Source of the DNA: Acidobacteriota bacterium
GTDB lineage: Bacteria; Acidobacteriota; Terriglobia; Acidiferrales; UBA7541
NCBI GenBank assembly: GCA_013289955.1
Contig: JABCYZ010000025.1
Span: 34,531 to 98,530 of the forward strand
DNA: 64,000 nucleotides
Direction of reading: 5' to 3'
Made by a program: the position numbers and the translations under genes. The notes beneath the pieces were generated by a model. It did not search any database and was not told where the DNA came from. It was given only the letters and a program-made list of their open reading frames with translations. Positions 6,261 through 17,681 of this stretch are shown piece by piece; the stretch's first letter is position 1; every line of letters starts with the position of its first letter.

Positions 6261-8609
6261 CTAGAAATTTGTCTGTAAGCGAACAGCGTAACTTCGCGGC
6301 GGCCCAATCGCGTTTCCCGAAAAAAGGCCTGCGAAATCAATCACATTGAGCCGGTTGTTCAGATTCGCCGCATCGAACTGCATCCTCACGGCCAGTCTTT
6401 CTGTCTTCCAAAGCTCCGCGCCGAGCGACGCGTCCATCGAAAACGACGGCCGCACCCGCCCCTTATCGAAGTTCACGCGGCTCACGACGGCCGGCCCATA
6501 CTGGGCAAGCGCCAGCGCCCGATCGCCGGAAAATTCAAAGGGCAATCCGGATCCGTACTCTCCGCCGATGCCTCCCCACAAGCGCTTTGTGAATTCGTAG
6601 CGCACGCGGGTCCGAACGGTATTCCGTTGGTCCTGCGAATCCCAAAAACGGCCGGTCCGCTGGCTCAAGGCGTTGCTTGCGTCGTCGCCCAGAAAAAGGC
6701 CGCCGGTCACCGGCAGGTAGGCCGATCCCACAATGTAGGAATAACTCAGAAAGCCGCTGAAGCGATTCCAGTGAGGGAGTTCCAGCTTTCCCTCCGCTCC
6801 GTAGATGTATGCCTTCAGGAACGCGATCGGAAAGCTTACTGCCGTGCTCAGCAGTTGATCGTCGTCCGCGTAGTTGTTCACGCGGCGATCGAAAACATTT
6901 GCGTCAAATCTCAGCTGGCCAAAGAAGTCCTTGGTCAGTCCGGCCTCATAATAATTTCCATGAGAGGGCTCGACCGGCAGCCGCAGCACCAGTGGATCGA
7001 GAGATGTCACGGCGGGCGAGCTGGATACCAGGATATTTTCGAACGAGGGCGTTTGGAAAATCCTGTCATAGGATGCATGTAAAACGATGCCAAGGCCTGG
7101 AATGTAGCGCCCCACGCTCAGTCGCGGGCTCACGGCGTTCTGATTCACCAGCAATTGATAGTGATCCCAGCGCAGTCCGGCGTTGACCGTCCAGTTCCCC
7201 AGGCGAATCTGGTCCTCGAGAAACGCAGCTTGCTCGAGGTCCGGCTTACTGCCGATAAAACTGAACGCAGGGGGCGTGCCAGGATCGAATTGCGTGAAGT
7301 CCGTAATCACGTCGCTGAAATTCTCATGCAAGAACGTCGAATCGGATTCGACGCCGGCTTTCCACTCTTGCCTGCCGTGATGCACCGAAACCGTTCCCTT
7401 GAAATATCCTTCGCGAAAATAGTTGTGCTGGAAGGCGATGACAGGCGTGGAATACGGGTTGGAATAAAGATCGTTCGAGTTTTCGCGAACCATCCCGCGG
7501 AAATCAGCGACGACATTTGGCGAAAAAATGTGCTCATAGGAAACGATTCCCATCGTTTCGAAATTGTCCGCGTTCTGAAGCTGTGCCCCGAGTGGCTGTG
7601 TCGGATCCAGGGGATCCGCGTGAGGAGTCTGCTGCACCTGTTCGTTAGGGATTTCATACCGTGAGAGTTCGCGGCGAACTGAAAGCGTCAGCCGGTCCCG
7701 GCTGCTCAAATCTCTTTCGTATCGGACAAAAAAATCACCCGTGGTGCCCGTGTTCGTGAAGTTCTCCGGCACCACCGGATTCAGGTAATGACTGGTCATG
7801 TCTCCGCTGCCGCTGACGCTCAGCGTATTCTTTCCCCAGACGTACTGGCCCATCAGATAGGAGCCAGCCGTGTCAAAGCTTCCTCCGGACAGGACGGCTT
7901 CGCCGTGAAAGCCGTCCCGCGTGTCTCTCGCTGTATTCACTTCCACTACCCCGCCCATCTTCCGCCCGTATTCCGCGGGAAATGTTGCGGTGTAAATGCT
8001 CATGGACGCGAGGTCATCCGCCTCGATTTCCGGCCCAAAGCTCGGTGATCGATTGTCGGTCAGCGGAATTCCATCCACGACAAATTGCGTTTGATATTCC
8101 GACCCGCGCGGATGCAGTACGGCATTCCCCTCATACAGCCAGCCGGGCTGAGAATTCACCAAATCCTGCAACGACCGTCCAGGAAGCGAGCCCACGCGGT
8201 TTTCAATCGTGTCTGTGCCTATGCGATGAATCGTTCCGGTGCGGTAGGGATCGATGAGCGTATCTGAATCCTTGACCACCACGGTGTCGCTCGCTGTGGC
8301 GAGGCTGAGCCTGGCCGTGAACGCCAATGGAATCGCGGAACGAATCTCGAGGGAATCCGTGAACGCTCTGAACCCGGAATGCTCGACCCGCAGCCGGTAG
8401 ACTCCAAATGGCAATCGCTTTGCCACAAGATTTCCGGCGTCATCGGTCTCGAACCTTTCTTCGAACTGGTTCGCCTCGCACACCAGCTCGACCGAGCTTC
8501 TCGTCCCGAGGCCGGAGGGATCCGTCACACTCAGGCGCAGTTCACCTGTATTGCTCTGCCCAAAGAGCGGAGAGACGCATGCCAAAAACAGCAATAGAAA
8601 TCGCTTCAT
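6261..8609 (-). CDS. TonB-dependent receptor with N-terminal carboxypeptidase-like regulatory domain
   Basis: Signal peptide MKRFLLLFLACVSPLFGQ; plug region VNSQPGWLYEGNAVLHPRGSEYQTQFVVDGIPL; beta-strand-rich C-term ending in YAVRLQTNF. Confidence 0.88.
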   Translation of the reverse strand: MKRFLLLFLACVSPLFGQSNTGELRLSVTDPSGLGTRSSVELVCEANQFEERFETDDAGNLVAKRLPFGVYRLRVEHSGFRAFTDSLEIRSAIPLAFTARLSLATASDTVVVKDSDTLIDPYRTGTIHRIGTDTIENRVGSLPGRSLQDLVNSQPGWLYEGNAVLHPRGSEYQTQFVVDGIPLTDNRSPSFGPEIEADDLASMSIYTATFPAEYGRKMGGVVEVNTARDTRDGFHGEAVLSGGSFDTAGSYLMGQYVWGKNTLSVSGSGDMTSHYLNPVVPENFTNTGTTGDFFVRYERDLSSRDRLTLSVRRELSRYEIPNEQVQQTPHADPLDPTQPLGAQLQNADNFETMGIVSYEHIFSPNVVADFRGMVRENSNDLYSNPYSTPVIAFQHNYFREGYFKGTVSVHHGRQEWKAGVESDSTFLHENFSDVITDFTQFDPGTPPAFSFIGSKPDLEQAAFLEDQIRLGNWTVNAGLRWDHYQLLVNQNAVSPRLSVGRYIPGLGIVLHASYDRIFQTPSFENILVSSSPAVTSLDPLVLRLPVEPSHGNYYEAGLTKDFFGQLRFDANVFDRRVNNYADDDQLLSTAVSFPIAFLKAYIYGAEGKLELPHWNRFSGFLSYSYIVGSAYLPVTGGLFLGDDASNALSQRTGRFWDSQDQRNTVRTRVRYEFTKRLWGGIGGEYGSGLPFEFSGDRALALAQYGPAVVSRVNFDKGRVRPSFSMDASLGAELWKTERLAVRMQFDAANLNNRLNVIDFAGLFSGNAIGPPRSYAVRLQTNF

Positions 8610-8751
8610 TGGCGATTGGCCCCGATGAAAAAGTTGTAGTCGCGCTGCGCCAGATGCTTGGGCAATCGAAGTCCCTATCAGCCCTATCAGGATGTTACTT
8701 CCCCGGTCGACGGGCGACGAAGATAAATCCAATGGAGGCGCTCAGGGACGA

Positions 8752-8818
8752 GTAGTCTCTGGTGGTTTCTCCCCGATCCGCCACGAATGGGACGATTATC
8801 GGAGACTACGCCACCAGA
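8752..8818. other. Crossing complementary 8-mers (pseudoknot or mutually exclusive hairpins)
   Basis: GTAGTCTC (8752-8759) pairs with GAGACTAC (8802-8809); TCTGGTGG (8758-8765) pairs with CCACCAGA (8811-8818). Confidence 0.6.
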
Positions 8819-8918: not shown

Positions 8919-9554
8919 GTGCCGCCTCCACATACCACTCCGGGCGCGATCTTCACCATCGGCCACTCAAATCTCGACTTGGAGGATTTCGTTGCCGTCC
9001 TTGCCGGCCGCGGCGTCCATACCGTCTGCGACGTGCGCAGCCGCCCCGGCAGCTACCGCTTTCCCCAGTTCAATCGCGAATCGCTGGAGGCCTGTCTCGC
9101 TGCCTCAAAAATTCAATATGAATTTCTCGGCGAGGCTCTCGGCGGACGCCCTTCCGACCCGCGCGCCTACCACTCGGACGGCATTGTAAATTACGAAGAG
9201 CGCCGCAAGGCCGCGGATTTTAGGGCCGGGGTGGATCGTGCGTTAGAGTTGGCCCGCGCCTCCAATATCGTTCTGATGTGCGCCGAGGAAGATCCCCTCG
9301 AATGTCATCGCTTCCTGATGGTCTGCCCCGCGCTGCTCGATCGCGGCGTTACGCCCGTGCACATTCGCCGTGGAGGTGCGCTGGAATCGCAGCGCGAAGC
9401 CGAAGACCTCCTTCTCAAATTGCATGACCTTACTGCTTTCGACAGCGGCTCTCTGTTCGTCTCGGAGCGCGATGCGGCCATCAGGGATGCGCTCCGCCTC
9501 CAGGCCAAGGAGTTTGCCTTCCGCGCGTCTCCGGAAGCCATTGAGTACTTCTGA
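8919..9554 (+). CDS. DUF488-family protein (copy 1)
   Basis: IFTIGHSNLDLEDFVAVLAGRGVHTVCDVRSRPGS... LMCAEEDPLECHRFL; GTG start preceded by an AGGG Shine-Dalgarno. Confidence 0.88.
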   Translation: MPPPHTTPGAIFTIGHSNLDLEDFVAVLAGRGVHTVCDVRSRPGSYRFPQFNRESLEACLAASKIQYEFLGEALGGRPSDPRAYHSDGIVNYEERRKAADFRAGVDRALELARASNIVLMCAEEDPLECHRFLMVCPALLDRGVTPVHIRRGGALESQREAEDLLLKLHDLTAFDSGSLFVSERDAAIRDALRLQAKEFAFRASPEAIEYF

Positions 9555-9557
9555 TCT

Positions 9558-10067
9558 ATGGAATTTCTCCTTTGCACGATCGGATTCGCGGGAAAAACTG
9601 CCGAAGAGTTTTTCCGCCTCCTCAAGCAAGCCCAGGTGGAAAAGCTCATCGATATTCGGCTCAACCGGGGCGGCCAGCTTTCTGGTTTCGCCAAGCATCC
9701 GGACCTTGCATTTTTTCTGCAGAAGGTCGCCGGCATCGATTATTCCCACGAGCCGCAGCTTGCTCCGACCTCCGGCCTGCTCGACGCCTATCGCGACTCG
9801 CGGGATTGGGCTGCTTACGAAACTGGATTTCTGGGCTTAATGCGAGATCGCGGGGTCCCAGAAGCTTTCGATGCGGGCATGTGGCCCGAACGAGCGGCGC
9901 TCCTTTGTTCCGAACCCGGTCCCGAGAAATGTCATCGTCGCCTCGCCGCCGATCTCCTTGCCGCGCATTGGCGGGAGCAAGGCCACAGCGTCGAGATTCG
10001 CCATCTCATCGGCGCCCGCGTGAAGCCTTCCAGACCGCCCCGCGCCAAGCCGAAATCCGCGCCATGA
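9558..10067 (+). CDS. DUF488-family protein (copy 2)
   Basis: LLCTIGFAGKTAEEFFRLLKQAQVEKLIDIRLN... LLCSEPGPEKCHRRLAADLL; starts 3 nt after copy 1. Confidence 0.88.
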   Translation: MEFLLCTIGFAGKTAEEFFRLLKQAQVEKLIDIRLNRGGQLSGFAKHPDLAFFLQKVAGIDYSHEPQLAPTSGLLDAYRDSRDWAAYETGFLGLMRDRGVPEAFDAGMWPERAALLCSEPGPEKCHRRLAADLLAAHWREQGHSVEIRHLIGARVKPSRPPRAKPKSAP

Positions 10068-10777
10068 CCCGGCTGCTCATCACCGAAATCACCCGCATGG
10101 GGCCGGCCTTCTGCGTCATAGGACTACAGCGTGAAAGCGGCAGAATTCGTTCCGTTCGTCCCGTTACCTCGACCGCCAACAGCTGGCTGCATTTCCCCTA
10201 TCGCCGAGGGGACGTGCTGCGATGCGATCTCTCCCCTTTCTCCGGTGCCAAGCCGCACATCGAAGATCGTGTTACGGCGCATGGCTTTCAGAAAGAATTG
10301 GCTGTTCCCGAACCGGGGGTCGTTGCTTTTCTGCGCAGGGCGGAAATCGCGGGCTCTCTGGCCGATCTTTTCGGCTGCGCCATTCATGAAAACAGGAACG
10401 GCGGCGGACTGCATGCCAAGCCTCTCGAGCCGGTGCGTTCGATTTGCGGAACCGAGACCAAAAATCTTCGCTTCGAGCTTTGCGCAAACGAACCTCGCGC
10501 TACTCTGGTTCTTTCTTCGGGCGAGGTCTTGCGCGATCTTCCCGTCGTCGACCGCGATTGGCGCGGCTTTATCGATGCCGCCCTGGCTGAGGCGAGAGGC
10601 GCGAATCGCGTTCATCGCCTCGAGCGCTTCCTGAACTCCCAATTCCATGACAAGGTCCTCTCTTGCCCGCACCACTTCCTCCGTCTCGGACTTACTCGGC
10701 CTTATCATGATCTCTGCTGGCTTATGCTGGACACCTTGTTCCCGCTGCCTAAACAGGAATGGCTCGAGGAGTTTTGA
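10064..10777 (+). CDS. Dual-OB-domain-like protein of unknown function
   Basis: MTRLLITEITRMGPAFCVIGLQRESGRIRSVRPV...PHIEDRVT; ATGA overlap with preceding DUF488 gene; family call from recall. Confidence 0.65.
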   Translation: MTRLLITEITRMGPAFCVIGLQRESGRIRSVRPVTSTANSWLHFPYRRGDVLRCDLSPFSGAKPHIEDRVTAHGFQKELAVPEPGVVAFLRRAEIAGSLADLFGCAIHENRNGGGLHAKPLEPVRSICGTETKNLRFELCANEPRATLVLSSGEVLRDLPVVDRDWRGFIDAALAEARGANRVHRLERFLNSQFHDKVLSCPHHFLRLGLTRPYHDLCWLMLDTLFPLPKQEWLEEF

Positions 10778-12063
10778 TGGCCCCCATCACGGATGAAAAT
10801 GGCTGGCTGCGCCTGGTCCTGGAGTGCTTCCGCCGGGAAGCTGGCTCCGAAGCTCCCCTTCCCGATTCCTCGCTGGACCTTATCGAAACCGGCGCGCTGG
10901 ACTCCATGGGCTGGGTCAGCTTTCTGCGGGCGCTGGAATCCGCCAGCGGCGTCAGCGATTTGGGGGCATTGCTCAGGGAGCAAACTCCGTCTTTGGAGAA
11001 CACGTTTCTGGCCTTAAAAAACGCTCGATCCGGAAGCCCCTCTTCCGGGGCTGGTCCTTCCTCCAAACACCAGCCCTTAACGCAATCCTCGGCCATTATT
11101 GCAAGCTCGGGCGCGGCCCTCGGCTCCCGCAAAATCCCTTCCGAGGAGGTTGACCGGGCCTTCGGCATGCCCGCCGGTAAACTTCGCCTTCGTGCCGGCA
11201 TCGAATCGCTTGCTTATGCAGCGGAGGACGAAAATGAACTCACGCTCGGCGCGCGTGCCGCACAGCGGGCGCTTCGCGCTGCCGCTTGCGGCCCTCAAGA
11301 ACTCGATTGGATTATCGCCACCACGGAAACCCATCGCAGTTACCCTTCGCTCGCCGCGCAGCTTCACTCTCAACTGCTCGCTCGCGAAACCTGCGGCGCC
11401 CTGGATGTCGGCGGCGCTTGTCTCGGTTTTGTGAATGCGCTCGCCGTCGCTCAAGGACTTATCGCGTCGGGACACGCCCGCACCATCGCCATAATCACCT
11501 CCGACGTCCATAGCCGCACTTTCAAGCCTGGCCGCGTGGCTGGAGAATTCGGCGGCTTGTTCGGCGATGGCGCCAGCGCATTTCTCTTGCGCGCAAAAAA
11601 CGGCACCCGGCCACGGCCAGCGTACGGCCTCGGTGAATTTTTCTTTGGCTGTGCAGGGCAATACGCAGGGGCGATCCGCGTGGCGGACGCCCCCAACGGA
11701 AACATCGATGCGCACTTTGATGGAGAAGCTCTCTCGCGAGCGGCCATTACGAGGTTGGAAAAAGTGGTAGGAGACATCGAACTGCGCAGTGGCATCGCCC
11801 GGTCTTCGCTTCAAGGCTTGGCCACTCACCAGCCCAATCCGCGTCTTGTCACCCTGCTCGCGAAGCAGTGCGGTCTTCCGCTCGAGAAATTTCCAGTCGT
11901 CGCTCGCCACTTCGGCAACCTCGGCTCTTCCACTTGCGGAGTCGCCCTTGACGCGATTCTCGAGTCGGCGTCGAGTCTGCCGGCAGATAAGTGGGGTGCC
12001 ATATTCACGGCATCCCTGGGTCCAGGCCTTCTTTTCGGCGGTGGATGGCTTGTTCCCGCTTAG
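10777..12063 (+). CDS. Acyl-carrier-protein domain fused to a FabH-like (KASIII) 3-oxoacyl-ACP synthase
   Basis: N-term SLDLIETGALDSMGWVSFLRALE (carrier DSM phosphopantetheine site); C-term catalytic C in DVGGACLGFVNAL, H in ATHQPN, N in HFGNLGSSTCG; start overlaps upstream stop (TGATG). Confidence 0.85.
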   Translation: MAPITDENGWLRLVLECFRREAGSEAPLPDSSLDLIETGALDSMGWVSFLRALESASGVSDLGALLREQTPSLENTFLALKNARSGSPSSGAGPSSKHQPLTQSSAIIASSGAALGSRKIPSEEVDRAFGMPAGKLRLRAGIESLAYAAEDENELTLGARAAQRALRAAACGPQELDWIIATTETHRSYPSLAAQLHSQLLARETCGALDVGGACLGFVNALAVAQGLIASGHARTIAIITSDVHSRTFKPGRVAGEFGGLFGDGASAFLLRAKNGTRPRPAYGLGEFFFGCAGQYAGAIRVADAPNGNIDAHFDGEALSRAAITRLEKVVGDIELRSGIARSSLQGLATHQPNPRLVTLLAKQCGLPLEKFPVVARHFGNLGSSTCGVALDAILESASSLPADKWGAIFTASLGPGLLFGGGWLVPA

Positions 12064-12109: not shown

Positions 12110-12256
12110 TTCCCTGGGCTCACTCCTCAAGCTAAATTCCAAACATGCTCATAAATTAAAGAAAATAAACATGTTAGTCGGATGCTTCGCTTGGCTGCCT
12201 TCGTGCACATCTCTGGGCGACTAAGACGGGATTTATCCCGGGGCAGAGGTGTAGGA

Positions 12257-12910
12257 ATGCAGCGAAGAAGCAAGAGAGCGCAGCAAGGATTCTCACTGGT
12301 CGAGTTGGTTACCGTCGTCGGGATTACCTTTGTCCTGGCGAGTATGGCCGTCATGTCGACAAGAAGTTCGACATACGCCTCACGGGCCAATGATGCCATG
12401 TTCCAAGTCATCTCCCAACTGCGGACCGCGCGCGAAATTGCAGTGACCAAGCGCCGCAACGTGCTGATCACGTTTGGCGCCCCAAACCAGATCCAGATTG
12501 CGGTCCAGACGCTCCCGGGCGAGACGGCGCCGGCCGCCATGGCACCGGTTTTCCTGAACGACGGAGTGCCCGGTGGCTGCACTTTTTACGTTTATCCGGG
12601 ACTGCCCGACACACCCATGGGATTCGGCAATTCGAGCGCACTTACCTTCGCTCCCGCGAGCGGCGGGACCTCAGGCCTTGCCATCATGTTCAGCACCTCA
12701 GGTAGCCTGGTCGGAACCACAGGCGGCTCCGGTTACAGCACAGTTGGGAATAACAATCCGGTCAACGCATCGATCTTTACCGGCATTGCCGGCCAGCCCA
12801 ATACCGCGCGCGCTGTCACTGTCATGGGAGCCACCGGGCGCGTCCGCTCGTATTCCTGGACTGCGGGAGCGACGGGCGGCACGGTCCTGAATTGGCAAGA
12901 AGAGCAGTAG
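12257..12910 (+). CDS. Type IV minor pilin, GspH/FimT-like
   Basis: Prepilin motif QQGFSLVELVTVVGITFVLASMAVM; GTAGGA Shine-Dalgarno before ATG 12257. Confidence 0.85.
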   Translation: MQRRSKRAQQGFSLVELVTVVGITFVLASMAVMSTRSSTYASRANDAMFQVISQLRTAREIAVTKRRNVLITFGAPNQIQIAVQTLPGETAPAAMAPVFLNDGVPGGCTFYVYPGLPDTPMGFGNSSALTFAPASGGTSGLAIMFSTSGSLVGTTGGSGYSTVGNNNPVNASIFTGIAGQPNTARAVTVMGATGRVRSYSWTAGATGGTVLNWQEEQ

Positions 12911-12925
12911 GAGAGAAGCCCATTT

Positions 12926-13477
12926 ATGAAAACACAGCGCAAACGTTCGCGACACCTGGCCGGCTTCACGCTTCTTGAAGCCATGATCTCAATCTTCGTA
13001 CTGACCTTCGGCGTCTTATCGCTGGCCGCGGTCTACGCCCAAGGCATCTTTTTCGCCAGCCTCTCTCAATACGACTACGTAGCCGAGAAGAAGGCCGAAC
13101 AGGCTGTGGAAGCTATCTTCACGGCCCGCGACATCAAGCAGCTGACCTGGGCTTCCATTCAAAACGTCAGTAACAACGGCGTTTTCCTCGATCCCCCGCA
13201 GCCCATCCTGGTTCCCGGCACGGACGGCCTCGTGGGGACGGTGACGGATCAGGGCTCCGCGGATGAAGTCATCACCATCGGCCCCGGCCCTGACGGAATT
13301 CTCGGTACGGCCGACGACCAGGTCGTCGACCTGAATCCCTGGATGAAACGCACCATCGCGATTTCCGCTGTGACCGGCGAGACGAACCTTCGCATGATCA
13401 CCGTCACCATCACCTATCAGGTTGGCAAGATGAGTCGCAACTACACGCTGATCAGCTACATCTCAGCGTTCGCCTAG
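12926..13477 (+). CDS. Type IV minor pilin, PilV-like
   Basis: Prepilin motif LAGFTLLEAMISIFVLTFGVLSLAAV; operon position. Confidence 0.83.
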   Translation: MKTQRKRSRHLAGFTLLEAMISIFVLTFGVLSLAAVYAQGIFFASLSQYDYVAEKKAEQAVEAIFTARDIKQLTWASIQNVSNNGVFLDPPQPILVPGTDGLVGTVTDQGSADEVITIGPGPDGILGTADDQVVDLNPWMKRTIAISAVTGETNLRMITVTITYQVGKMSRNYTLISYISAFA

Positions 13478-13499
13478 AGAGCTTATGAGGACTTTGGAC

Positions 13500-14631
13500 A
13501 TGAAGAAACAATCTGGGTTCACGCTAGTCGAATTCTCAGTGGCCATGGCCATCACCTTGGTCTCCCTGCTGGCTACCGTCATGGCCTTGAATGGCCACGT
13601 ATTCAAACCAGAACGTCACCCAGCGCGAAGATATGGCCGACAACATCCGCGCCGGCCTGAACCTTCTCGAGCAGGACGTCATTATGACCGGCATGGGCGT
13701 TCCAACTGGCGGCATTACGATCCCGAGTTTCACCGCCACGACGGCTTGCCCGGGCGGCACTTCCAATCTGGCTCGTCCGCTCCCGACCGGAACAGGTACC
13801 TTTCCTATCTGCAACACGACCTTGCCGGCCATCGAACCTGGCAATGCCCTGGGGCCCTTCATCACCGCCCCGGACGCCACCTCGAGCGTGAACACCGACA
13901 TTCTTACGGTCGTCTACGCGGACAACACTTCCAGCTCCACTTCCACCATCATCGGCATGAACGCCCAGCCCATCAACGGCACAAGCTGCCCCCTTGGCAC
14001 CATCTCGGCTACCGGGAATTCCGTTACCTTTGACTCCAGCTGCTTCAACCTCACGAGCCTCGCTGCAAGCGGCGTACAGATCAATCCCGGCGATCTGATC
14101 ATGTTCAGCAATACGAATGGCAAGGCTCTTCAGCTGGTCACGAGCGTGTCCGGCCAAACGCTGGGTTTCGCTTCCGGCGACGCTTTCCATCTGAACGGGA
14201 TCACCAGCGCCGTGGGCGGCACGATTAAACAGCTCCAGAATTCCACCGTCAATGGCACGACCGGCGTTGTCACCTATCTTGGCACTTATCCGCAAACATC
14301 GGCCACGCGCATTTGGATGGTTTCCTACTGGCTTGATAACGTGACCGACCCCATCCACATCCGCCTCGATCGCGCAGTGAATTTCAACGCGCCGCAGCCG
14401 GTGGGAGAGACTCTCGAGAATCTGCAATTCACTTTCAATTTCAATGACGGCATCGCTGTGAACCAACTCACCGTTCCCACGGGCTACTCCGAAAGCCAGA
14501 TTCGCTCCGTGAATCTCTTTATGAGCACGCGCTCGACCAGCATGCTCGGCCAGACGAAACAGTACGCCCGTGAAAATTTCCAGACGCAGCTCAGCCTTCG
14601 CAGCATGGCCTACGTCAACCGGTATCAATAA
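13500..14631 (+). CDS. PilW-like minor pilin, split over two frames (apparent +1 frameshift at about 13591-13620)
   Basis: N-term MKKQSGFTLVEFSVAMAITLVSLLATVMALN in frame 3; body YSNQNVTQREDMADNIRAGLNLLEQDVI... to 14631 in frame 1. Confidence 0.75.
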
Positions 14632-17600
14632 TGAGGAGCCTTATCATGAATGCCCCGAATAGACAGATGCGACGCGATTCCGGCATCGCCCTGCTTACCA
14701 CCCTGTTGCTTATGCTTCTCATGTCCAGCCTGCTGGTTGGCTTCGTCCTGCTCATCAGTTCCGGACAGAAGCTGAGCGGCTACAACAACGACTACAGCAA
14801 GGCTTTTTATGCAGCCGAAGCCGGCATGGAGAAGTTGACGGCGGACATTGGCACGCTCTTCGACACGAACTATTCGCCTACTGGCACCCAGATCAACGCC
14901 CTCACAACTACTCCTCCGGGTCTCGCCGGCATCAACTACGTCCAATACAACGGGGCCAGCGGCTACAATATTTCTTTTCCGGCGGACTCCAACGGCAACC
15001 CTCTCGCCACCACCAATGTGATTGATTCGGGTGCGTATGAAGGTATGACGGCGCTCCAGACCCTCTACACTCTCAATGTGACGGCACGCACGACCTCCGG
15101 CTCCGAGGTGAAGCTGCAGCGCACCACCCAGACCGTCGGCATCCCGATGTTCCAGTTCGGCGTCTTTTCCAGCACGGACCTCAGTTTCTTTCCGGGCCCA
15201 TCCTTTAGTTTTGGCGGCCGCACCGCTACCAACGGCAACCTGTTCCTCGCTACGAGCGGCGGCCCTCTATCCCTTACCGAGCCCGTCAGCGCCTATCTGA
15301 ACGTTATCCGCACCAACCTTTCCAATGGCTTTCCCACCGCCAGCTCGTATAACGGCCCCGTCAACGTTTTCAACGGCAGCGGCACACGGCCCCTGGCTTT
15401 GACCGAGGGCAGCCTGGTAGGCACAATCGGGTCCGCCACTAACTCCAACTGGCCTACTATCTCTCTGGGCAGTGCCGACTATGCCGGCAACTTGCGGAAT
15501 GGCGCCACCGGCGCGAACCAGCTGAATCTTGGCATTGTGCTGCTAGGGAACGGCACCACGCAGCCTGTCGACATGATCCGCCGTCCCTTTGGCACCACGG
15601 AGAGCGCGTCCGTCACCAACCTGCGCTATTTCGCGCAAGCCAGTCTTCAGATTCTGTTGTCGGATAACCCGACCGACATTATGTCGCTCCCTTGCGTTGA
15701 TACGGGCACGCAGCCGGTTAACCTGGCTCAACTTGCTTCTCCCGTTTCCACCTGGACGGGACTGGGAGGTAATCCAGCGGCTCTTTACACGAAAATGAAC
15801 TCCAACAACACGGCGGGGTACAGCACGCTTCCCGTGCCGCTGGCAGCATCGGGAGCGGTAATGAGTGCCACGGCTTACAGCCCGGGTGGTACCGCCACAC
15901 TCAATGGAAACGGCTACTGGTTGCCGAATCCCGGCGGCACCGGCTTCACCACCGCATCCGGTCTGCCCGTCATAAAGGGCTACATCAAAATCGAAGTGCA
16001 GACTGCTTACGGCAATCCCTGCGGCACTTGGAAGGACGTGACGATCGAGGTCTTGGGCTACGGCTATGCAGGCCGCAATATCTTCCCTCAGGGGGGCCTC
16101 GTAGGGTCACAGTACGGCACTTCTGAACCACTGTTGCCGCCGCCAACGAGCCAAGTAGCGTCTCCCTACAGCGCAGGCTTCACCTGCCCGACAGACGTAC
16201 ATCCAAACGCGATCATCCGCCTGGAGCGTGTTCGTGATAACCCGTCTAACTATGGGACGCAAGGTCCATGCGGCATAACCATCACCGCCGGCAAAGTTAC
16301 TGCTGCCCCGGCGAACCCCGCCGATTATTGGCCGAACGCCCTCTTTGACACTCGCGAGGGCAACTCACGCGACATCATCCCTGCCGGCAGTATTGGCGGC
16401 GGCGCTAATGTCATTAACTATTCGCAGATGGTTACCCTCGGCGGGGTCATGCAATACATCGAACTCGATGCCAAGAACCTGGCAGCTTATTTCGCCGGCA
16501 CGGGCGTCTACACGGGCGGGTCTGGCCACCTGGCCTATGACGGCGTTACCGCCCCTAACGATTACACCGTATACATCTCCGACCGCCGCGGCAACTATAC
16601 AGCGTCCGCACTCACGAACGTCTGGCCTCCGCTCTCGCCGAGCGGTCATGAGACGGGCGAGTACGGCTGGAATGACTTCGTAAACCCCCTCAGCGCCTAC
16701 GGGTGCCCCAACAATACCCAAGATACCGGAGAAGACCTCGACGGCTTGGGCACGACAGGTTTCTACAACTATGGAGCGAACCCGACCTACATCATGGACG
16801 CTGGCGCAGTAACCACGGGTATGACCCTGGCCACTGTGAACACAACCCTGGGCTTCGGACAATACGGAATGTTTGGTCTGGCCAGCCCCGGCAATCTTTA
16901 CGGCGCAAGCACCACCGCCAATGCTATAACAGCCAATCCGAACTGCACGGTTACCGTGCCTTCCACCATCTGGCCTTGGGCTGAGGTTATCCACGCGAAT
17001 GAAGCGCGCGAAAATCCCAACCCCTTCTTCCGCAGGGCCGTAAAAGTGGTGGACGGCAATCTCTTGAGTGCCCTTGGCACTTGCCCGGGAGGGGTTCCTT
17101 GCGGCTTAGCGATTGCCACGGAGAACCCGGCGTATATTCAGGGCGACTTCAACGCCAACGCCGCCGGCGAAGGTTTCGACGACGCCACAAACGTAGCGGT
17201 TTCTGTGAACGCCGACGCGTTGACGCTGCTCTCGAACAACTTCAACGACGTGAACAGCTTCGCCTTTCCCTACGTGACGTCGAACACCCAGCGCAATGCC
17301 GTAACCACTTATTTCCGGACCGCCGTGATGGCTGGCAAAGGAGTCTCTTTTCCGCAACCCACGACCTGCGGAACGGTGGCTTGCTACGCGGACTTCGGCA
17401 CCGATGGCGGCGTCCACAACTTCCTGCGCTTTCTCGAGGACTGGGGTGCCAATGGCGGTCAGACCCTGTTCTACCGCGGCTCGATCATCAGCATGTATTA
17501 CAACCGCCAGGCCGTCGGCACGTACAAGGACGGCCTATCCAACACCGTCTACCAACCGCCAACACGCGGCTACAACTTTGATACGGAGTTCCTGACTCCT

Positions 17601-17681
17601 TCTCTTTTGCCGCCGCGCACGCCGCTCTTCCGCGACGTGAACACCACGGGCTTTACGCAGCTTCTTCTGCCTAGTCAGTAG
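14631..17681 (+). CDS. Large (about 1016 aa) PilX-like type IV pilus-associated protein
   Basis: N-term DSGIALLTTLLLMLLMSSLLVGFVLLISSGQKLSGYNNDYSKAFYAAEAGME resembles PilX_N; start overlaps pilW stop. Confidence 0.8.
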   Translation: MRSLIMNAPNRQMRRDSGIALLTTLLLMLLMSSLLVGFVLLISSGQKLSGYNNDYSKAFYAAEAGMEKLTADIGTLFDTNYSPTGTQINALTTTPPGLAGINYVQYNGASGYNISFPADSNGNPLATTNVIDSGAYEGMTALQTLYTLNVTARTTSGSEVKLQRTTQTVGIPMFQFGVFSSTDLSFFPGPSFSFGGRTATNGNLFLATSGGPLSLTEPVSAYLNVIRTNLSNGFPTASSYNGPVNVFNGSGTRPLALTEGSLVGTIGSATNSNWPTISLGSADYAGNLRNGATGANQLNLGIVLLGNGTTQPVDMIRRPFGTTESASVTNLRYFAQASLQILLSDNPTDIMSLPCVDTGTQPVNLAQLASPVSTWTGLGGNPAALYTKMNSNNTAGYSTLPVPLAASGAVMSATAYSPGGTATLNGNGYWLPNPGGTGFTTASGLPVIKGYIKIEVQTAYGNPCGTWKDVTIEVLGYGYAGRNIFPQGGLVGSQYGTSEPLLPPPTSQVASPYSAGFTCPTDVHPNAIIRLERVRDNPSNYGTQGPCGITITAGKVTAAPANPADYWPNALFDTREGNSRDIIPAGSIGGGANVINYSQMVTLGGVMQYIELDAKNLAAYFAGTGVYTGGSGHLAYDGVTAPNDYTVYISDRRGNYTASALTNVWPPLSPSGHETGEYGWNDFVNPLSAYGCPNNTQDTGEDLDGLGTTGFYNYGANPTYIMDAGAVTTGMTLATVNTTLGFGQYGMFGLASPGNLYGASTTANAITANPNCTVTVPSTIWPWAEVIHANEARENPNPFFRRAVKVVDGNLLSALGTCPGGVPCGLAIATENPAYIQGDFNANAAGEGFDDATNVAVSVNADALTLLSNNFNDVNSFAFPYVTSNTQRNAVTTYFRTAVMAGKGVSFPQPTTCGTVACYADFGTDGGVHNFLRFLEDWGANGGQTLFYRGSIISMYYNRQAVGTYKDGLSNTVYQPPTRGYNFDTEFLTPSLLPPRTPLFRDVNTTGFTQLLLPSQ

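What the first reader, a model, noticed from the sequence alone, without database searches (positions are those of the whole stretch)
8919..12063. Four-gene overlapping operon pairing two DUF488 proteins and a dual-OB-like protein with an ACP-KASIII fusion
Seen directly: the stop/start junctions are 3 nt apart (9554/9558), an ATGA overlap (10064-10067) and a TGATG overlap (10775-10779), so the four products are very likely co-translated. Established: both DUF488 copies keep the IGxxxxxxxxF, DxR and C-E-x-P-xx-CHR signatures; the fourth protein has a carrier-type DSM site and a full FabH-like Cys-His-Asn triad. Inference: an uncharacterised DUF488/dual-OB module has acquired a decarboxylating condensing enzyme with its own carrier domain. 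It might build or attach a small acyl molecule, or act as a signalling or defence system. This gene combination is the best candidate in the window for an undescribed system.
Basis: partly seen in the sequence, partly recalled or inferred. Interest (0 to 1): 0.8.

Follow-up and report, generated by a model that had tools for sequence, protein, structure and literature searches.

The report
DUF488–DuOB operon with fused ACP-ketosynthase
In one class of soil Acidobacteria, a widespread three-gene module already listed as a candidate phage-defence system is consistently joined to a fourth gene, an acyl-carrier/ketosynthase enzyme, which hints that a fatty-acid-type reaction has been added to a nucleic-acid-handling system whose function nobody has tested.

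Summary
The four-gene operon is real (window 8919–12063, + strand; junctions as described). The first three genes are not an undescribed system: genes 1 and 2 match PADLOC's candidate defence system PDC-M45 (B, C), and gene 3 is a divergent member of its third component (PDC-M45A = Pfam DuOB). That triad occurs in many phyla. In 62 non-acidobacterial loci and 7 loci from other Acidobacteriota classes I found no ketosynthase nearby. In the window's class (Terriglobia) intact triads are instead always followed by the ACP–KASIII fusion, in two families and at unrelated chromosomal sites. In the window's genus the same chromosomal slot holds either the whole operon or the ketosynthase core alone. 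The ACP domain tracks gene 3 almost perfectly: 19 loci have both, 1 has ACP only, none has gene 3 only, 17 have neither. A separate housekeeping FabH lies elsewhere in the genome. So this is a lineage-specific four-gene variant of a known candidate module. Most likely DuOB binds nucleic acid, the DUF488 pair acts on it, and ACP–KASIII supplies an acyl group; that chemistry is inferred only. "Undescribed" holds only for the ketosynthase partnership.

The parts
8919..9554 (+). gene 1: DUF488 protein, PDC-M45B type (211 aa from the GTG start; an upstream in-frame ATG at 8787 is not supported by relatives)
   Evidence: (PDC-M45B 2.1e-53)
9558..10067 (+). gene 2: DUF488 protein, PDC-M45C type (169 aa)
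   Evidence: (PDC-M45C 6.3e-49)
10064..10777 (+). gene 3: divergent dual-OB (DuOB) protein, 237 aa, counterpart of PDC-M45A
10777..12063 (+). gene 4: N-terminal acyl-carrier domain (aa 1-85, Ser43 in LDSMGW) fused by a disordered linker (aa 87-102) to a KASIII core (aa ~105-428; Cys215, His351, Asn381)
10777..11031 (+). acyl-carrier-like domain within gene 4, absent in every relative that lacks gene 3 except L072

Best explanation
A Terriglobia-specific four-gene variant of the DUF488-DUF488-DuOB candidate defence module (PADLOC PDC-M45). Shown here: the family assignment, the conserved four-gene order, the class restriction of the ketosynthase, and near-perfect co-occurrence of the carrier domain with the DuOB gene. 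Inferred: the DuOB protein grips nucleic acid through its two OB folds. The two DUF488 proteins, with their Cys/Glu/His/Arg site, carry out a group- or phosphate-transfer step on it. The ACP-KASIII loads an acyl chain, condenses or transfers it on its own carrier Ser43, and the carrier domain hands the acyl product to the DUF488/DuOB complex, either to modify the nucleic acid or to make a small acyl effector. Repeated loss and allelic exchange at a fixed slot, and placement of related triads in defence islands on plasmids, favour a role in conflict with phages or plasmids over housekeeping. My rough confidences: family identity of the triad about 0.9; the four genes work as one unit about 0.65; a nucleic-acid-directed, defence-like role about 0.4; acyl hand-off by the carrier domain about 0.25.
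For: PADLOC and Pfam assignments. DuOB membership by profile and fold; the top structural neighbours are tandem-OB DNA binders such as HIN-200, LEF-3, Teb1 and RPA (Foldseek E about 0.01, so only suggestive). Four-gene order conserved in the genus, traceable in two other genera of the family, and present in family f6 beside unrelated genes. No KASIII or ACP beside triads elsewhere. ACP with gene 3: 19 both, 1 ACP only, 0 gene 3 only, 17 neither; Fisher p 1e-9, not corrected for kinship. A further genome, G655, has all four genes with the ACP. In the decaying locus L091 genes 2 and 3 are deleted in part and the ACP serine segment is gone while the KAS core stays intact. On plasmids, triads lie beside CBASS genes (L176) and beside type III CRISPR genes and csm6 (L177).
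Against: The Terriglobia copies I checked lie among ordinary metabolic genes, not defence islands. The ACP sits physically between gene 3 and the KAS core, so one deletion can remove both without functional linkage. The KAS core persists under purifying selection without the triad (dN/dS about 0.08-0.12), so it has some use of its own. One genome (G014, L072) has ACP-KASIII but no gene 3. There is no experimental evidence for any member. The PP-binding match is below Pfam's cut-off.
Confidence: 0.4

Rival explanations
1. The KASIII is an unrelated resident metabolic gene; the triad (plus a carrier domain) is a cassette that sits upstream of it, and the association is positional rather than functional.
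For: In the genus 15 sampled genomes keep the KAS core alone, most of them in the same neighbourhood, under purifying selection. Closely related G262 and G064 differ by replacement of 424 bp with 2,459 bp ending at the start of the KAS core, with 93-95% identical flanks, so the core can serve as an anchor for exchange.
Against: In family f6 the same four genes stand together at other sites, and triads of this class were not found intact without the KASIII. The carrier domain is part of the KASIII polypeptide and is absent when gene 3 is absent, with one exception. Compact, overlapping junctions are conserved.
Confidence: 0.25
2. The operon makes a small acyl signal or secondary metabolite; the DuOB/DUF488 proteins act on a nucleotide- or sugar-phosphate-containing substrate or regulate synthesis.
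For: KASIII relatives with solved structures include PqsD, CorB and a polyketide priming enzyme; the DUF488-2 profile has a marginal, non-significant match to RapZ, a sugar-phosphate-sensing RNase adapter (E 0.79).
Against: No tailoring, export or regulatory gene is consistently linked; the triad alone occurs in many phyla without any KASIII.
Confidence: 0.2
3. The triad has a housekeeping nucleic-acid role (repair, RNA processing) and is not a defence system; the KASIII tunes it to lipid metabolism.
For: Triads in Chloroflexi and Terriglobia sit among metabolic genes.
Against: Patchy presence, frequent loss, and plasmid copies beside CBASS and type III CRISPR genes.
Confidence: 0.15

Closest known systems
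PADLOC candidate defence system PDC-M45 (A = DuOB, B and C = DUF488)
   Same: Two DUF488 genes of types B and C in the same order, next to a dual-OB gene.
   Different: Gene 3 is too divergent to match PDC-M45A or Pfam DuOB directly; an ACP-KASIII fourth gene is added, which no triad outside Terriglobia has here.
RapZ-C/DUF488/DUF4326 clade of the rhodanese-phosphatase superfamily (Burroughs & Aravind 2023; recalled from memory, paper not held)
   Same: DUF488 domains with conserved cysteine; as I recall, predicted DNA-end processing in conflict systems.
   Different: That work, as far as I recall, does not describe a KASIII partner; I could not read it.
FabH / beta-ketoacyl-ACP synthase III
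   Same: Same fold (TM 0.90 over FabH) and Cys-His-Asn triad.
   Different: Well below the FabH curated cut-off (127 vs 292 bits), fused carrier domain; FabH Trp32 (recalled as the CoA adenine contact) is not conserved in the alignment; the genome has a separate FabH.

Membership tests
PDC-M45 (PADLOC candidate defence) | PDC-M45B DUF488 gene | tested here: met
   2.1e-53
PDC-M45 (PADLOC candidate defence) | PDC-M45C DUF488 gene | tested here: met
   6.3e-49
PDC-M45 (PADLOC candidate defence) | PDC-M45A dual-OB gene adjacent | tested here: inconclusive
   no direct PADLOC hit; profile-profile with DuOB proteins, most of which match PDC-M45A: 96.6%, E 6e-10
PDC-M45 (PADLOC candidate defence) | protects against phage | not testable with these tools
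   no experiment known to me for any member
Pfam DuOB (PF22557) | score above gathering threshold | tested here: not met
   best relative E 0.009
Pfam DuOB (PF22557) | two OB folds in tandem | tested here: met
   model pLDDT 90, strand-rich; best structural matches are tandem-OB proteins, Foldseek E only about 0.01
DUF488 (PF04343) | score over cut-off and C-x-E...CHR motif | tested here: met
KASIII (FabH-like condensing enzyme) | fold and Cys-His-Asn catalytic triad | tested here: met
KASIII (FabH-like condensing enzyme) | FabH subfamily score | tested here: not met
   127 bits against cut-off 292: not FabH itself
acyl carrier protein (PP-binding PF00550) | helical bundle with DS(L/M) serine at the start of helix II | tested here: met
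acyl carrier protein (PP-binding PF00550) | score over Pfam cut-off | tested here: not met
   13.1 and 18.5 bits against 20.8
acyl carrier protein (PP-binding PF00550) | 4'-phosphopantetheine on Ser43 | not testable with these tools
   needs mass spectrometry

The most novel reading that the evidence does not exclude
An acylating nucleic-acid-modification or defence system: the ACP-KASIII builds an acyl group on its own carrier and the DUF488/DuOB triad attaches it to, or is triggered by, invading DNA or RNA. It would be the first use of a carrier-protein ketosynthase in nucleic-acid modification or immunity that I am aware of.
Probability: 0.15. Interest if true: 0.85.

Novelty: new variant of a known kind. 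Interest (0 to 1): 0.5.

Why it matters
The DUF488-DUF488-DuOB triad is widespread and its chemistry is unknown. A lineage that has welded a well-understood carrier/condensing enzyme to it gives a biochemical handle: the acyl group carried on Ser43, and whatever accepts it, would reveal what the triad does. The natural series of loci with the full operon, the core alone and half-decayed forms in related species makes that testable by genetics.

Tried and rejected
Housekeeping FabH: rejected, a separate FabH is in the genome. Phage or viral origin of the triad: no match to gene 2 in 50,697 phage records or in the viral contig collection. A separately encoded ACP in loci that lost the fused one: none found within the fetched flanks. 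A carrier or KASIII beside triads of other phyla: none. A constant extra partner gene beside triads in other phyla: none; neighbours vary and look metabolic. Promoter and terminator scans gave no more than chance. Literature: the key DUF488 classification paper is not held; searches for PDC-M45, DuOB and ketosynthase-linked defence found nothing relevant. Counting ACP losses on the KAS tree (at least 6 forced changes) is not a clean count of losses, because the locus recombines and one row (L090) is truncated by a contig end rather than lacking the ACP.

Full report
OBSERVATION. The four ORFs, coordinates and junctions are as described. Spacing is conserved: +5, −4, −1 nt in most same-genus operons and compact in more distant ones.

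WHAT THE PARTS ARE. Genes 1 and 2 are DUF488 proteins and match PADLOC PDC-M45B and PDC-M45C at 2e-53 and 6e-49. All relatives keep C-x-E…CHR. Gene 3 has no direct hit, but its family aligns with DuOB proteins at 96.6% probability, and the third member of PDC-M45 is DuOB. A confident model (pLDDT 90) has almost only OB-fold nucleic-acid binders near the top of the PDB comparison, at modest significance (E about 0.01). Gene 4 is a FabH-like KASIII with all three catalytic residues. Its N-terminal domain is modelled as a helical bundle with Ser43 at the start of the second helix, linked by a disordered stretch at 87–102. It is not FabH itself: it scores far below the curated cut-off, and a proper FabH lies at G000:C12.

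DISTRIBUTION. A profile of gene 2 found 80 loci in one genome per species. In the 62 non-acidobacterial loci, 51 have a DuOB gene, most have both DUF488 genes and none has a KASIII within 6 kb, where the contig reaches that far. Seven loci from other Acidobacteriota classes also lack it. In the window's class, 22 of 299 sampled genomes have gene 3 or a piece of it, and wherever the operon is intact and not cut by a contig end the KASIII follows. Family-f6 genomes carry the same order among different neighbours, such as cytochrome c, isocitrate dehydrogenase-type, ferrochelatase or TetR genes. A further genome, G655, also has all four genes with the ACP. Related triads on plasmids lie next to CBASS genes and to type III CRISPR genes with csm6. 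No phage or viral copy was found.

A LOCUS WITH TWO STATES. In the window's genus the same site, bounded in many genomes by a TonB-receptor-like gene on one side, carries either the full operon or the KAS core alone; a few genomes lack both. The carrier domain is present in 19 loci with gene 3, in one without it (L072), and absent from all 17 others lacking gene 3, including L105, which still has gene 2. L068 and L069 keep gene 1 only. L091 is a decay intermediate: genes 2 and 3 are partly deleted and fused, the ACP serine segment is gone and the KAS core is intact; an assembly error cannot be excluded. L094 has genes 1 and 2, a broken gene 3 and no KASIII. Closely related G262 and G064 differ by replacement of 424 bp with 2,459 bp, breaking at the start of the KAS core, with flanks 93–95% identical. 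Gene 3 of G064 is at most about 75% identical to any intact relative while its KAS core is 96% identical to that of G262, so exchange by recombination at the core is likely. These loci are therefore not independent losses, and the Fisher value (1e-9) overstates the case. The upstream sequences of the core-only alleles suggest several, perhaps four to six, separate origins (my estimate). The core stays under purifying selection in both states.

INTERPRETATION. Shown: a class-specific four-gene form of a known candidate module, with the carrier domain tied to the presence of gene 3. Inferred: nucleic-acid binding by gene 3, transfer chemistry by the DUF488 pair, and acyl loading and hand-off by gene 4. 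The main rival is that the KAS core is a resident gene used as an anchor for a cassette. The carrier domain, which is part of the KASIII chain yet accompanies the triad, is the best argument against pure coincidence; but it lies between gene 3 and the core, so a single deletion would remove both, and this weakens it.

NOVELTY. The triad is already known as a candidate; the ACP–KASIII partnership appears not to be described in what I could search. The key DUF488 classification paper was not available, so that statement is limited.

Noticed in passing
L058:2583-3006 against L078:9308-11766: Two closely related species show a clean exchange of 424 bp for a 2,459 bp triad+ACP segment, ending at the KAS core; suggests allelic cassette exchange at a fixed slot.
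   Followed up: partly
L176:4603-6447 (A. tumefaciens plasmid pAt1D1108a): DuOB-DUF488-DUF488 triad a few kb from CBASS cyclase/HORMA/AAA genes and near an integrase.
   Followed up: partly
L177:4714-6438 (Allochromatium tepidum plasmid pAt1): Triad next to csm6, csx16, cas1 and a RAMP-family gene of a type III CRISPR locus.
   Followed up: partly
L148:6357-8099: A single open frame joins a DuOB domain to a complete dihydrodipicolinate reductase (DapB) in a Chthonomonas MAG, directly after the DUF488 genes; fusion or assembly artefact.
   Followed up: no
L122:3711-5372 (Belnapia moabensis): DuOB protein with a 325-residue N-terminal extension without any Pfam match, upstream of the DUF488 pair.
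   Followed up: no
   Followed up: no
window 6261-8732 (-) and 12182-17681 (+): Flanks: a TonB-receptor/carboxypeptidase-regulatory-like outer-membrane protein upstream, and a gene with a prepilin-type N-terminus (N_methyl) followed by further ORFs downstream; the same downstream block also follows the KASIII in L072 and L077.
   Followed up: no
plasmid records: 125 plasmid records, mostly of Enterobacteriaceae and largely conjugative, carry a distant DUF488-2 relative; several list only one DUF488 gene under the match.
   Followed up: no
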